64,000 nucleotides of DNA, taken from Elusimicrobiota bacterium (GTDB lineage Bacteria; Elusimicrobiota; Elusimicrobia; Elusimicrobiales; UBA9959). Every line of letters begins with the position of its first letter. The stretch's first letter is position 1. The position numbers and the translations under genes are program-made. Positions 55,994 to 64,000 of the stretch are shown piece after piece. A model generated the notes under the pieces. It was not told the DNA's origin. It saw only the letters and a list, made by a program, of their open reading frames with translations, and did no database searches. The stretch is from positions 1 through 64,000 of the forward strand of contig JACQYT010000109.1 in assembly GCA_016208085.1 (NCBI GenBank), in the 5' to 3' direction.

Positions 55994-56951
55994 ATGCCCG
56001 TTGACATAATCGTGGGCGCCCAGGCCGGCGACGAAGGCAAAGGCAAGATTTGCGCCTACCTGGCCTACAAAGGCAATTACCAGTACGCCATAAAGGTGGG
56101 CGGTCCCAACGCCGGGCATACGCAAACTGGTCCTCGGCGCCGGCACCTACATAATAACCGACTGGCTTTTAAAGGAAATGGCGCAAACCCGCTCAGGCGG
56201 CCGCCTTATAATAGACCCCGGCGCCGTGGTGATCACTCCTCAGCAGATGGAAAAGGAACGGGGCGACGCCCGCATGATGAAGAGCATCGGCAGCGTGGGC
56301 ACGGGCCTGGGCGAAGCCGTAAAAGAGCGCATTGAAAGGAAGCCGATAAAGTTCGCGAAGGACGACCCCAGGCTCAAGCCCTATGTCAGGGAAGTTACCG
56401 GGCTCCTTAATAAATCCCTGCAGAGAGGCGCCGAGATACTTCTGGAGGGCACCCAGGGCATGAAACTCTCTCTGCTGCACGGGGAATACCCTTATGTCAC
56501 CTCAAGGGACACCACCGCCTCCACCTTCCTGGCCGAGGCGGGCCTGGGCCCGAAATACGTGCGCGACGTTTACGCTATATTCAAGCCTTATGTCAGCAGG
56601 GTGGGCCCGGGCCCGCTTGAGAACGAGGTCAGGGACCAGGCTGCGCTGAACGTTCATCATACCAGGGGCCGGGAAGTGGGCTCGGTCAGCGGGCGTTTAA
56701 GGCGCATAGGCGCCTTTGAGGAGCGCACGGCTTTCAGGAGCATCTCCATAAATTCCGCCACCAAACTGGCGGTAACTCATATAGACACTTTTAAAGGCAA
56801 CGCCGCCGCCAGAACAAGCGCGCAGTTCACCCCGGACGCAAAAGCCTTCATTAAAAAAATAAGAGACCTTTCAAAAATATACCCGTACCCGTCGCTCGCC
56901 CTTATCTCCTACGGCCCGGGTCTGCTGGATGTTATAGACTTAAGAATGTAG
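55994..56951 (+). pseudogene. purA: Adenylosuccinate synthetase, interrupted by internal deletion/frameshift in this sequence
   Basis: Frame 1 VDIIVGAQAGDEGKGKICAYLAYKG..VGGPNAGHT, then a jump to another frame, KLVLGAGTYIITDWLLKEMAQTRSGGRLIIDPGAVVITPQQMEKE... Confidence 0.8.
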
Positions 56952-57015
56952 CGGCGGGCGTAAGCCCGCGAGGATAGCTTAAGAATGTAGCGGCGGGCGT
57001 AAGCCCGCGAGGATA
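56939..57015. repeat. Tandem pair (39-bp period) of GTAG-headed REP hairpins
   Basis: cttaagaatGTAGCGGCGGGCGTAAGCCCGCGaggata repeated twice; the first GTAG supplies the TAG stop of purA. Confidence 0.9.
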
Positions 57016-58962: not shown

Positions 58963-60066
58963 ATGGCGGGTTCAATAACCATCTTCCTGGACAGGTGCAA
59001 CGGCTGTACGCTCTGCGTGAAAGCGTGCCCGTTCGACGCCATACACATGGCCAACAAAAAAGCCGTGATAGACATGGCAAAGTGCACGCTCTGCGGCGCG
59101 TGCGTGGAAGTCTGCGAACTCAACGCCATAGAGCTGAAGAAAGACGCAGGCGTAAAAAAAGACCTTTCCCTGTATAAAGACGTCTGGGTTTTCTGCGAGC
59201 AGAAAAAGGGCGTCATCCAGTCCATCTCCTTTGAGCTGCTCGGGGAGGGGAGAAAGCTCGCCGACAAGCTGGGCGTCAAGCTCTGCGCGGTCATGCTGGG
59301 AAGCGCCGTAGAGTCCAGGATAGCGGAGCTGGCGGAGCGCGGAGCGGATAAAATATATATCGCGGACCATCCCGCATTACAATCCTTTCAGGACGACCCG
59401 TACACGGAAGTGTTGGTGAAGCTGGCCGAAGAATATCTGCCGGAGATAATCCTTTGCGGCGCCACCGTTATCGGCAGAAGCCTGGTGTCGCGCGTCGCGG
59501 TCAGGCTAAACGCCGGGCTCACCGCCGACTGCACCGCTCTGGACATCGCCGAAAAGGAGCGGCTGCTGCTGCAGACGCGCCCGGCGTTCGGCGGCAATAT
59601 CATGGCCGTCATCATAACGCCGAACCACAGGCCGCAGATGGCCACGGTCCGGCACAAGGTCATGAAAGAAGCCGCCATAGACAAAGCCCGCAAGGCCGAA
59701 GTTATAAGGAAAAACTACCCGGATGAGGTGATGAAGTCGCGCACCAGGCTGGTGGATATAGTGGCGGAAATAGAGGAGACGGTCAACCTGGCGGAGGCCG
59801 ACATAGTCGTGTCCGGCGGCCGGGGACTGGGGGGGCCTGAGAATTTCGCGATGATACGGGAGCTGGCCAAGACGCTTAACGGGGCGGTGGGGGCGTCACG
59901 GGCGGCGGTTGACGCGGACTGGATACCGTATTCGCACCAGGTGGGGCAGACCGGCAAGACGGTGGTCCCGAAGCTTTACCTCGCCTGCGGTATTTCGGGG
60001 CAGATCCAGCATCTGATAGGTGATGAAGGCCGGAAAGTCCCTGACCCCCGATTTCAAGGAGAATAA
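58963..60066 (+). CDS. etfA: Ferredoxin-domain-containing electron transfer flavoprotein alpha subunit, C-terminally truncated
   Basis: 2x[4Fe-4S] CNGCTLCVKACP / CTLCGACVEVCE, then EtfA (VSGGRGLGGPENFAMIRELAKTLNGAVGASRAAVDADWIPYSHQVGQTGKTVVPKLYLACGISGQIQHLIG); the expected continuation is missing. Confidence 0.88.
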   Translation: MAGSITIFLDRCNGCTLCVKACPFDAIHMANKKAVIDMAKCTLCGACVEVCELNAIELKKDAGVKKDLSLYKDVWVFCEQKKGVIQSISFELLGEGRKLADKLGVKLCAVMLGSAVESRIAELAERGADKIYIADHPALQSFQDDPYTEVLVKLAEEYLPEIILCGATVIGRSLVSRVAVRLNAGLTADCTALDIAEKERLLLQTRPAFGGNIMAVIITPNHRPQMATVRHKVMKEAAIDKARKAEVIRKNYPDEVMKSRTRLVDIVAEIEETVNLAEADIVVSGGRGLGGPENFAMIRELAKTLNGAVGASRAAVDADWIPYSHQVGQTGKTVVPKLYLACGISGQIQHLIGDEGRKVPDPRFQGE

Positions 60067-60067
60067 A

Positions 60068-63000
60068 ATGGCAAATAAACAAAAAAATGAAAAACCGGCT
60101 TCTTCTGCGCCTTTTGGAACTACACAGCGGGCTTATACCATGCGCCTTGCGCCAACGAAAGATTCCCCCGGGGACTGGAAGGAAAAGTTGTGGAAAACCC
60201 ACAAGGCAGTCAATGAAGGGGCGCAATTTTTTGGTGATTGGGTTTTGACTCTCCGAGGCGGACTTGCTGCTGAAGGGGCATTGACCCCTGAAGAAAAGCG
60301 GCTTTTGGCTCTTTGTTGGTTCTGTGTGGAATCGGAGGAGAAACACACTGAAAAATTCCGCGTTCCGCATCCGGATAAAGGCGGTACAGATGGCCGACAT
60401 GTTGATGTATCCGAAATGAAAAAGGCTTTTCTTGAATGTCTTAAGAAAAAAGGTATTTCCAACGGGGAGTCTGACGGCTGGTGGAATGACTGCAAAGACG
60501 CTTTAACCGCGCGTATACGAGACGATTCAGTCTGGGTCCGGCGCTGGAAAATGTATGAGGAAATGCCGTCAAAGCCTGACCAAGGGGAGATAGAGGGAAT
60601 TTTATCTAAGTTCTTAGGCAAGGATTTTCTCAAGCCTTCAAAAGTGGATGATAGCCAAAAAAACGAGTCATCTGATAGCGCAACCAGGAATGAAGGCGAG
60701 GATAAAAAGACGGAGAAAAAACGCAAAAAAACTCATAACCCGAGCAATCAGGCGCGGCAGTTCTGCTGCAATTGGTTCGGTGAAGGGAAGGGCGCTGATT
60801 TTGACAAAATCCGCATGGTTGCCGCGCAAATAAAAGAATTTGCGGAAAGCATACAATCAAACCTTCCTGAAGATGGAAAGGCGTTGTGTGACAAAATTCG
60901 AGAGTTCAGGGACAAAAAAAAGTGGGAGGAAATTGCCGACCAGAAATCTGGGGCCAAACCCAAGCCTGCAAACGACCCTGCTTTGAACAGATGTGGGTCC
61001 GTAAAAAAAGATTGGGACAGAATGCTTACTGCTCTTAAGTTTAATTCGCAAAGTCCGGATGTGACCGGCGCGGATGTGTCAGATTTTGTAACCCTGGACT
61101 TTTGGGGAAATCTGGCTAAAAAGGCGGAAAATCTCGGTAAAAGTAAAGAGGGGAAGAAAGGTAAACCTAAAAAAACAGACTGGAGCAAAAATCTACTTAA
61201 TGATTTTATACGACACGCAGGATTTACCTACAAAACCGAACAAAAGGGTGACCGACGCTTGGAGTTTTTTTATTTCATGGCTGGCCAGGGTGCGAGGAGG
61301 GTTTCTCAAACTCATTCCTGGGTAAAAATTGCAGAAACAAGCCGGGCCAAAGCGGAAGCAACAAAAACGGAAAAAGAGGGAAAATTTAGTAAAACTAAAG
61401 ACTGGCAGAAAGCCAAGGAATGGCTTGATGAATATGTGTCTGGCAGGACTGTTTCTTCAAATGCCGCCGGCGATTACGCAATACGCAAGAATGCCATAGA
61501 CGGTTGGGATGAAGTTGTGAAGGTATGGAATTCATGCGGGGATGCCGATGAACGCAGGGAAAAAGCAAGAATACGCCAGGATGAACTGGAAAAATTCGGG
61601 GATATAAATCTTTTCCTTGATTTGACGGAAAACGATGCGGTTTGCGTGTGGAAACCGGGAACAAAAACGGAACCGGAAATATTAAAAGATTATGTGGCGC
61701 TCACAACAGCAGAGCATGACGCGAAACGTTTCAAGGTGCCGAGCTACCGTCATCCCGACCCTGTTAATCATCCCGTTTATTGCGAATTCGGGAACTCAAA
61801 GCCTAATATTGAATACTCGTGGCGGGATAATCCCAAAAGCGCAAGTAAAGATGAAATAACAAAAATTTTATTCTTTCTTCCGGATAATAAACTTGAATTG
61901 CGCTGGCAGAGTAAAAGGCTTGAGGAAGATTTTGGCTTCAAAATTTCGGCCCGTGTTAAAAAAACAGCCGATGGAAATGTTTCCAAATCTGTTTCGGAAC
62001 TTCCACGCGCAGACCGGCTAGGTAAGGCATCCTGTGATTTAGGGCTTTTCGAGCAGCCATGTGTTGTATATCCGTTCTCAACCGATGTCAAAGACTGGAA
62101 TGCCCGGCTTGAAATTTACCGCTCCGATCTGGACCAGCTTAAGAAATGGCCGCTTCATAATCAGGAGAAATTTATAAATCAGCGTTTGCGCTGGTTTTTA
62201 ACTTTCAGTCCACAGCTCCCCAAAGCCGGGCCCTGGTGGAAATATATTGCTGATAAAGGAGTTCTTGAGAAAATTATTAAAGACACCGAACTTCCGGGCA
62301 AATCTCTTTTTATCAAAGAAAATCGGCGCGCGGATGCTCCGGTGAACATCGTGCGCTTTACCGACAAAAATGAAGCCGTTACAAAATGTTTTGCCAATGT
62401 GAATGGCGATTACGGCTGGCTTGTGAGGCCGGGGTTAGGAAATCTTCCGAAAATCAGGGTAATGGGCGTGGATTTGGGCCACCGCTACGGCGCGGCGTGT
62501 TCAGTTTGGGAACAGATGAGTGAAAAGGAACTTGAAAAGACTGCCCGCGGGGCCGGGGCGGAACTTCCTGGCGCTAATACGGTAAGTTTTCGCTGTAATG
62601 ACCCCGATAGGAAACCGCAAGAAGAAAAGAAACAGCAGGAATTGATATGCCGGAAACTTGGGCCGGATTCATGGAATAAACTTGAACGGCAGTTTGTCAT
62701 ACGCCTGCCGGGAGAAAAAACGGAAGCCCGGTCTCTTTCTGAATGGGAAGTCAAATGGCTTACTGATTTTTATGCCGACTTAGGGCGCAAGTTCAACGAC
62801 GATTTACGGAAAAAAGAAAATGCATCCGAAGGCCGCTTTGAGGTTCTGGATAATGCCCGTCTTGCCCTTAAACGCCATGCAAATATAATCAAAATATACC
62901 ACGCTTTTTGCGGAAAAACCCGGCCGCAGCCGGGCGGGAGGGAAAAGTCAATAGATACTCTCAAAGACCGGGCGGATTATGTGGAAAGCGTGCTGGAACT

Positions 63001-64000
63001 CTGGTATCAGCTTGCGTCGGCCAAAAATTGGGAGGCTGAAAAATATAAAAAGTTATGGGAAACTTATGTGCAAAAGATGGAGCCGGTATTGGCTTTAAAA
63101 TCCGATGAAGATGAAAATGAACCGCGGAAACATAAAAAGGAACGTGCAGGACAGTATAGTAAAATTGCTCAAGAACTCGCCGGGAATGAAATTTTATGCC
63201 AGGAGATAGGAGAAGAATTTTTAAAACTATGGCGCGAGGAAGACGGTAAATGGCTGTTCCGCTTAAAGGAGTTAAGCGCGGTAATAGCCAAAGGCCGGAG
63301 AATTGAAAACGGCGAAATTATGCCGAAAGAAACAAAAAGCGCAAGTCGGAAAACCGGCGGACTCTCCCTTGAGCGCATAGCGACAATGGGCCTGCTTGCC
63401 AAACTGCATACGGCATATGCTCAGCGCCCCACTGACAAAAAACTTCGCAATGAATTAATCGCGGGGAAGGGATTCCCTGGAGCGAAATTCCGCGACAAAA
63501 TGGAACGGCTTAGGGAAGACCGGCTAAAAAAACTCTCCAATGCCGTAGCAATGGCGGCCATGGGCTTGGTCGGGAAAGGAAAAGACAAAGTCGCCAATCT
63601 TGAAAAAGAAAGAAACGAAGGATCGCGCTTTGCGCCCGTTCACGCTGTATGCGTTGAAAGTCTTGAACATTACCGACCAGAGCAGTCCCGTACCCGGCGG
63701 GAAAACCGGGCTTTGATGTCCTGGAGTTCGGGACAGCTTCAGAAATATCTTGGCGAAGCCTGTGATCTTAACGGCATTCTTCTCACCGAAGTAAGCGCGG
63801 CATACACCTCCCGTTTCTGTTCCCGCTGCGGCGCGCCGGGAATAAGGGGTGAAATTATAGCCGCTGAAAAACTCAACGACAAAAACGGTTCATGGCAGAG
63901 GCAGGTGAAAAAAGCTGAGAAAAAAGACAGAAGCAAAAAAACTTTGCGGGACGAGTGGCTTCTTGAAATCAACGGTTATAATCTGCCGGCAGATAGCAGA
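60068..64000 (+). CDS. cas12b: Type V CRISPR effector, Cas12b (C2c1)-like; 3' end beyond window
   Basis: Open frame of 1311 codons to the window edge after SD-like AAGGAG; N-terminus LWKTHKAVNEGAQFFGDWVLTLR; mid KVPSYRHPDPVNHPVYCEFG; RuvC-I KIRVMGVDLGHRYGAACSVWE (D802); bridge/PI-region LPGEKTEARSLSEWE; RuvC-II HAVCVESLEHYRPEQSRTRRENRALMSWSSGQLQKYL (E1197); AAYTSRFCSRCGAPGIRGEI. Confidence 0.93.
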   Translation, partial: MANKQKNEKPASSAPFGTTQRAYTMRLAPTKDSPGDWKEKLWKTHKAVNEGAQFFGDWVLTLRGGLAAEGALTPEEKRLLALCWFCVESEEKHTEKFRVPHPDKGGTDGRHVDVSEMKKAFLECLKKKGISNGESDGWWNDCKDALTARIRDDSVWVRRWKMYEEMPSKPDQGEIEGILSKFLGKDFLKPSKVDDSQKNESSDSATRNEGEDKKTEKKRKKTHNPSNQARQFCCNWFGEGKGADFDKIRMVAAQIKEFAESIQSNLPEDGKALCDKIREFRDKKKWEEIADQKSGAKPKPANDPALNRCGSVKKDWDRMLTALKFNSQSPDVTGADVSDFVTLDFWGNLAKKAENLGKSKEGKKGKPKKTDWSKNLLNDFIRHAGFTYKTEQKGDRRLEFFYFMAGQGARRVSQTHSWVKIAETSRAKAEATKTEKEGKFSKTKDWQKAKEWLDEYVSGRTVSSNAAGDYAIRKNAIDGWDEVVKVWNSCGDADERREKARIRQDELEKFGDINLFLDLTENDAVCVWKPGTKTEPEILKDYVALTTAEHDAKRFKVPSYRHPDPVNHPVYCEFGNSKPNIEYSWRDNPKSASKDEITKILFFLPDNKLELRWQSKRLEEDFGFKISARVKKTADGNVSKSVSELPRADRLGKASCDLGLFEQPCVVYPFSTDVKDWNARLEIYRSDLDQLKKWPLHNQEKFINQRLRWFLTFSPQLPKAGPWWKYIADKGVLEKIIKDTELPGKSLFIKENRRADAPVNIVRFTDKNEAVTKCFANVNGDYGWLVRPGLGNLPKIRVMGVDLGHRYGAACSVWEQMSEKELEKTARGAGAELPGANTVSFRCNDPDRKPQEEKKQQELICRKLGPDSWNKLERQFVIRLPGEKTEARSLSEWEVKWLTDFYADLGRKFNDDLRKKENASEGRFEVLDNARLALKRHANIIKIYHAFCGKTRPQPGGREKSIDTLKDRADYVESVLELWYQLASAKNWEAEKYKKLWETYVQKMEPVLALKSDEDENEPRKHKKERAGQYSKIAQELAGNEILCQEIGEEFLKLWREEDGKWLFRLKELSAVIAKGRRIENGEIMPKETKSASRKTGGLSLERIATMGLLAKLHTAYAQRPTDKKLRNELIAGKGFPGAKFRDKMERLREDRLKKLSNAVAMAAMGLVGKGKDKVANLEKERNEGSRFAPVHAVCVESLEHYRPEQSRTRRENRALMSWSSGQLQKYLGEACDLNGILLTEVSAAYTSRFCSRCGAPGIRGEIIAAEKLNDKNGSWQRQVKKAEKKDRSKKTLRDEWLLEINGYNLPADSR

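What the first reader, a model, noticed from the sequence alone, without database searches (positions are those of the whole stretch)
60068..64000. Cas12b-like type V CRISPR effector running off the window end
Seen: a 1311-codon + strand frame, absent from the ORF track because it has no stop inside the window. I walked the codons line by line from 60121 to about 61800 and around the RuvC motifs; the rest was read by eye. Established: Cas12b (C2c1) carries an N-terminal LWKLHKEVNAGVRYYTEWL-type segment, RuvC-I VMSVDLGLRTSASISV, RuvC-II LLEELSEY followed by ENNQLMQWSHR, and SRFDARTGAPGIRC. All have clear counterparts here in the right order. Inference: the window edge cuts a subtype V-B or V-B-related locus, with cas4/cas1, cas2, the array and tracrRNA expected downstream of 64000.
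Basis: partly seen in the sequence, partly recalled or inferred. Interest (0 to 1): 0.93.

Follow-up and report, generated by a model that had tools for sequence, protein, structure and literature searches.

The report
Complete type V-B CRISPR-Cas12b locus
The window edge cuts through a genuine, apparently intact Cas12b gene-cutting enzyme of a bacterial CRISPR immune system from an Elusimicrobiota bacterium. The rest of the system (memory genes, guide-RNA partner and spacer array) lies just beyond the edge, and its parts appear to have different evolutionary histories.

Summary
The open frame continues past 64000 to contig position 64507 and encodes a 1,479-aa Cas12b (NF033949, 579 bits against a cutoff of 150). 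It has all three RuvC acidic residues in place (D802, E1197, D1344). A tracrRNA covariance model built only from other loci finds this one at E = 2e-17, its only hit in the genome. This is a complete subtype V-B locus in an Elusimicrobiota MAG: a new member of a known kind, of the large ChCas12b-like effector branch. Two features are less ordinary. The effector keeps all four cysteines of the TnpB-type zinc motif, which the other Cas12b forms compared here have lost at least in part. And the modules disagree: the effector is only 24% identical to the compact Cas12b of other Elusimicrobiota (themselves closer to Alicyclobacillus Cas12b), yet Cas4-Cas1 (62%), Cas2 (about 60%) and tracrRNA (124 nt, no gaps) go with those same loci. 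The conflict is significant by AU test and points to effector exchange on a shared chassis. PAM and activity are untested.

The parts
60057..60061 (+). Shine-Dalgarno-like AGGAG upstream of the cas12b ATG
   Evidence: sequence AAGGAGAATAAAATG
60068..64000 (+). cas12b, in-window part (codons 1-1311). The gene continues on the same contig to 64507 (1,479 aa), followed, beyond the window and in the same coordinate scale, by: second zinc half FFCSNPDC and RuvC-III QADFNASAN (D1344 at 64097-64099); cas4-cas1 fusion 64508-66280 (590 aa); cas2 66307-66594 (95 aa); tracrRNA 66624-66747 with anti-repeat 66673-66689; CRISPR array 66880-67698 (12 repeats of 36 nt, 11 spacers)
   Evidence: cas12b: (NF033949 579 bits, cutoff 150). 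cas4-cas1: NF049935 662 bits, cutoff 560, 7mi4 E=3e-110. cas2: TIGR01573 and PF09827. tracrRNA: CM built without this locus, E=1.8e-17, compensatory pairs. Array:
62450..62485 (+). RuvC-I KIRVMGVDLGHR, catalytic Asp = D802
   Evidence: alignment; D802 aligned in all relatives compared
63635..63724 (+). RuvC-II CVESLEHY (Glu = E1197) and ENRALMSW
   Evidence: alignment; E1197 invariant
63809..63841 (+). first half of the four-Cys (TnpB/Cas12f TNB-type) zinc motif, SRFCSRCGAPG (C1251, C1254)
   Evidence: PF07282 27.1 bits, cutoff 26.3

Best explanation
This is a complete subtype V-B CRISPR-Cas locus, in the order cas12b, cas4-cas1, cas2, tracrRNA, array, in an Elusimicrobiota genome. The Cas4-Cas1/Cas2 complex captures short DNA pieces and adds them to the array. 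The array transcript pairs with the tracrRNA through the anti-repeat and the GUGCC/GGCAC contact, is presumably trimmed by host RNase III, and guides Cas12b to matching double-stranded DNA, which the single RuvC site cuts. Shown here: the genes, intact catalytic residues, the array, and a tracrRNA supported by covariation. Inferred from the family: RNA processing, 5' T-rich PAM recognition, staggered DNA cutting, and that the locus is expressed. The effector belongs to the large ChCas12b-like branch, whereas the adaptation genes and tracrRNA belong with loci that carry a compact, deeply different Cas12b. The locus is therefore most likely a product of effector exchange on a conserved V-B chassis; this last step is less certain than the rest, and the confidence given is for the V-B identification.
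For: Cas12b: NCBIfam equivalog 579 bits, PADLOC Cas12b best, PDB ChCas12b 9kln E=7e-161 and AacC2c1 next by fold. D/E/D triad present. cas4-cas1, cas2 and array directly downstream. tracrRNA: a CM from G221/G222/G190 alone finds 66624-66747 at E=1.8e-17, the only hit in the genome; pair columns 5-44, 7-42, 8-41, 10-39 and 23-31 change on both sides and still pair. Same gene order in Alicyclobacillus dauci V-B. Module conflict: effector identity 24% to the compact clade, but Cas4-Cas1 62% and Cas2 59-64%. AU tests: the Cas4-Cas1 data reject the effector grouping, p=0.001; the effector data reject the Cas4-Cas1 grouping, p=0.0004.
Against: No spacer matched phage or plasmid records, and exact scans with four spacers found nothing in IMG/VR, so neither function nor PAM is shown. 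Expression is untested. The exchange claim rests on nine or ten loci with long branches: the Cas4-Cas1 p-value weakens to 0.015 without the partial G178 row, the A. dauci genes are frameshifted, and only the N-terminal half of G178 Cas4-Cas1 is available.
Confidence: 0.95

Rival explanations
1. The effector and the adaptation genes share one history. The large Cas12b simply evolved much faster than Cas4-Cas1, Cas2 and the tracrRNA after both forms split from one V-B ancestor within Elusimicrobiota.
For: The tracrRNA and repeat are conserved with the compact-effector loci, and an effector must keep recognising its RNA. Branches in the effector tree are long.
Against: The compact clade's Cas12b is nearer to Bacillota Cas12b (33%) than to this one (24%), and the effector data reject a common origin apart from Alicyclobacillus (p=0.0004). 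ChCas12b (PDB 9kln) sits with this effector, and G178 pairs with this locus by effector but with the compact clade by Cas4 (p=0.03).
Confidence: 0.25
2. The protein is a TnpB-like or other type V effector (Cas12c, d, e, f or u) that only resembles Cas12b in the RuvC region.
For: TnpB, Cas12f and TNB models give weak hits around the zinc motif.
Against: Those hits score 17-43 bits, and the NCBIfam TnpB and Cas12f2 hits are well below cutoff; TNB is barely above its cutoff. Cas12b scores 579 bits over residues 41-1469, and the locus has the V-B gene order and a V-B tracrRNA.
Confidence: 0.01
3. The locus is decayed or inactive, like the reported Cas12b3 variant with a lost RuvC site.
For: A short 102-aa remnant of the same effector branch exists in G212, so this branch does decay. 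No spacer targets were found.
Against: Full-length open frames for all three genes, catalytic D/E/D intact, identical repeats across the array, covarying tracrRNA.
Confidence: 0.04

Closest known systems
ChCas12b (PDB 9kln/9klo/9klp/9klq, 1,496 aa)
   Same: Same large Cas12b branch (tree support 100/100), 38% identical, length within 17 aa, homologous N-terminus (TQRAYT) and RuvC.
   Different: 9kln has lost the zinc cysteines (SRQDSRTGAPG; VFVSADA), while this protein has all four. The 9kln locus and organism could not be examined; no paper was held.
Elusimicrobiota MAG JACQRQ010000217.1 (G178/L025)
   Same: Closest effector found, 42% identical, all four zinc Cys, followed by cas4-cas1.
   Different: Contig ends inside cas4-cas1; its Cas4 part is nearer to the compact-effector loci (71-73%) than to this one (62%).
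Compact V-B loci of Elusimicrobiota (G221, G222, G190)
   Same: Gene order, Cas4-Cas1 62%, Cas2 59-64%, repeat core and 3' GGCAC end, tracrRNA alignable over 124 nt without gaps.
   Different: Cas12b about 1,067 aa and only 24-25% identical; zinc motif lost (SRFHARSG).
Canonical V-B of Alicyclobacillus (AacC2c1 5u30; A. dauci NZ_CP104065)
   Same: Gene order cas12b, cas4-cas1, cas2, tracrRNA, array; similar tracrRNA architecture; repeat ends GGCAC (A. dauci).
   Different: Effector about 1,130 aa, 22% identical (A. dauci); zinc motif degenerate (SRFDART in Aac); Cas4-Cas1 47%.

Membership tests
Cas12b (type V-B effector) | Curated family model above cutoff over nearly the full length | tested here: met
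   NF033949 579 bits, cutoff 150, residues 41-1469
Cas12b (type V-B effector) | Split RuvC site with Asp, Glu, Asp | tested here: met
   D802, E1197, D1344 in alignment
Cas12b (type V-B effector) | Overall fold of a Cas12b RuvC-Nuc half | tested here: met
   AF2 model of residues 780-1479 (mean pLDDT only 58.5) best matches ChCas12b, then AacC2c1, E=2e-24 and 2e-9
Subtype V-B locus | cas4-cas1 fusion and cas2 next to the effector | tested here: met
   64508-66280 and 66307-66594
Subtype V-B locus | CRISPR array | tested here: met
   12 identical 36-nt repeats
Subtype V-B locus | tracrRNA with anti-repeat | tested here: met
   Model built from other loci, E=1.8e-17; duplex with the repeat -25.2 kcal/mol
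Subtype V-B locus | T-rich 5' PAM and dual-RNA-guided dsDNA cleavage | not testable with these tools
   No protospacer found; needs experiment
Cas12b3 (inactivated V-B variant, PMC12669027) | Substituted RuvC-I and RuvC-II residues | tested here: not met
   Residues intact
TnpB / Cas12f | Family model above cutoff | tested here: not met
   NF040570 33.7 bits, cutoff 100; Cas12f2 21.6, cutoff 450. Only the TNB zinc domain passes, 27.1 against 26.3

The most novel reading that the evidence does not exclude
Two Cas12b effectors only about 24% identical and about 400 aa different in size run on one shared V-B chassis (same adaptation genes, same tracrRNA design) because effectors were exchanged in place. 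The large form keeps the TnpB-type four-cysteine zinc motif. The two should then be partly interchangeable in guide RNA, which would show that V-B effectors can be swapped without changing the guide RNA.
Probability: 0.5. Interest if true: 0.55.

Novelty: new member of a known kind. Interest (0 to 1): 0.42.

Why it matters
It adds a complete, apparently intact V-B locus with a defined tracrRNA and crRNA to the little-explored large Cas12b branch, in a phylum where 8 of 341 genomes examined carry Cas12b in three deeply separate forms. The effector/adaptation conflict makes a specific question testable: can two distantly related Cas12b proteins use each other's guide RNA because they share a chassis? 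The retained four-cysteine motif bears on how Cas12b arose from TnpB.

Tried and rejected
A single-sequence scan of genome contigs found nothing; the pair alignment found one relative and one remnant, but its patterns are stringent, so rarity outside the phylum cannot be claimed. Two viral-contig scans for effector relatives found none. Spacer searches in phages, plasmids and, for four of the eleven spacers, exact in viral contigs gave nothing. Literature searches for 9kln, ChCas12b, Cas12b with Elusimicrobia and a Cas12b2 paper with detail gave nothing usable. The AF2 model is too weak (mean pLDDT 58.5) to judge the zinc site. A first tracrRNA alignment that included A. dauci was misaligned in P1 and was dropped in favour of one from three loci. 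A Cas4-Cas1 tree without the 1,360-aa clade had no resolution.

Full report
Observation. The window is positions 1-64000 of contig C67 (76,362 bp) of a 3.14-Mb, 136-contig genome. The best start is ATG 60068: it has an AGGAG ribosome-binding site, lies one base after the end of the upstream electron-transfer-flavoprotein-type gene (annotation by reading), and yields the same N-terminus (FGTTQRAYTMRL) as two relatives. The frame leaves the window after 1,311 codons and stops at 64507, giving 1,479 aa.

Identity of the protein. The in-window part alone scores 506 bits for NCBIfam Cas12b, and the full protein scores 579 (cutoff 150). PADLOC gives Cas12b as best. Among solved structures the best match is 9kln at E=7e-161, which is ChCas12b, followed by the chain 5wti and AacC2c1. 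A predicted structure of residues 780-1479 (modest confidence) matches ChCas12b and then AacC2c1 by fold.

The rest of the locus. Directly downstream on the same strand (window scale, beyond 64000) are a 590-aa Cas4-Cas1 fusion at 64508-66280 (662 bits for NF049935, cutoff 560), a 95-aa Cas2 at 66307-66594, and at 66880-67698 an array of 12 identical 36-nt repeats (GTCCCACCGAGCAGAAAAACCTTAAAGGACTGGCAC) with 11 spacers of 34-36 nt. The A. dauci plasmid V-B locus has the same order, with its tracrRNA between cas2 and the array (the tracrRNA there was found by reading).

tracrRNA. In the cas2-array gap, CTTTTAAGGGTTTTCTG is the strongest duplex partner of the repeat core in 16 kb outside the array; 4 of 500 shuffled cores did as well in that gap. 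A covariance model built only from three other Elusimicrobiota loci finds 66624-66747 at 71.8 bits, E=1.8e-17, as the only hit in this genome. The four sequences align over 124 nt without gaps, and pair columns 5-44, 7-42, 8-41, 10-39 and 23-31 change on both sides while still pairing. The GUGCC of the tracrRNA faces the GGCAC end of the repeat; in the third clade both are changed together (CCGCC with GGCGG). A CGAGCG...CGCTCG hairpin follows the anti-repeat in the six loci inspected (G190 with one G-U change).

Relatives. The record title of the nearest relative is Elusimicrobia, so the phylum is Elusimicrobiota. Eight of 341 genomes of the phylum carry Cas12b above cutoff, in three forms: large (this one, 1,479 aa, and G178, 1,452 aa), middle (about 1,360 aa: G327, G110, G112) and compact (about 1,067 aa: G221, G222, G190). 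The forms are 17-27% identical to each other. A ninth genome, G212, has only a 102-aa N-terminal remnant of the large form.

Zinc motif. This protein and G178 have SRFCSRCG and (F/V)CSNxxC, the four-cysteine pattern of TnpB/Cas12f. PF07282 just passes its cutoff (27.1 against 26.3 for this protein; 24.6, below cutoff, for G178). ChCas12b, the middle clade and the compact clade have lost some or all of the four. Zinc binding itself is not shown.

Module conflict. By effector, this protein groups with G178 and ChCas12b, while the compact Elusimicrobiota form groups with Alicyclobacillus (support 100/99; identities 24% and 33%). By Cas4-Cas1, this locus groups with the compact loci (62%), and Alicyclobacillus stands outside (47%); Cas2 agrees (59-64% against 39%). 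AU tests reject the swapped topologies: p=0.001 for Cas4-Cas1 (0.015 without the partial G178 row) and p=0.0004 for the effector. The tracrRNA goes with the compact loci. The simplest account is exchange of effectors on a fixed adaptation-plus-tracrRNA chassis. Such in-place exchange is a recognised trend (PMC6452270; PMC12669027 uses Cas1-effector co-occurrence to count it). The sample is small, branches are long, and the groups were named after the trees were seen, so this is probable, not proven.

Mechanism. Shown: genes, intact active site, array, covarying tracrRNA. Inferred from the family: adaptation by Cas4-Cas1-Cas2, RNase III processing of the tracrRNA-crRNA duplex, T-rich PAM, RuvC cleavage of both DNA strands. 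No protospacer was found. Spacer 8 reads GSSGTGKNHLA in one frame, as a P-loop ATPase would, which is only a hint of origin.

Verdict. It is a new, complete member of subtype V-B, not a new kind of system. The module conflict and the kept zinc cysteines lift it above routine.

Noticed in passing
window 55994-56951 (+): purA (adenylosuccinate synthetase) appears frameshifted: one ORF starts the protein and a second, overlapping ORF in another frame continues it. Could be a sequencing error.
   Followed up: no
L002 10104-10202 and 15160-15258 (contig C67 70104-70202 and 75160-75258): Two identical 99-bp copies that begin with the palindrome AATAAAATGTTGTCCGACAACATTTTA, MITE-like, 5 kb apart downstream of the locus.
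   Followed up: no
L023 (G000:C17) and L024 (G000:C55): The same genome carries what look like a type I-C locus (with an array) and a type I-E locus, so it has three CRISPR systems (subtypes by reading).
   Followed up: partly
L002 6699-6746 (contig 66699-66746) and the same place in L018, L019, L021, L022, L070: A CGAGCG...CGCTCG hairpin follows the anti-repeat in all three Elusimicrobiota forms and in Alicyclobacillus; it may be the tracrRNA 3' end or a regulatory site.
   Followed up: partly
upstream of the first repeat in L002, L019, L020, L021: A GCTCGRAAAYG-like motif is shared in the leader of these loci, with possible leader function.
   Followed up: no
window 56939-57015: A 38-bp unit repeated twice in tandem after purA, each with a GGCGGGC...GCCCGC hairpin.
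   Followed up: no
L071 (NC_011887.1, around 390072-390431): Methylobacterium nodulans plasmid holds an unannotated N-terminal Cas12b fragment (34% over about 130 aa) between catalase and peptidase genes: a likely remnant.
   Followed up: no
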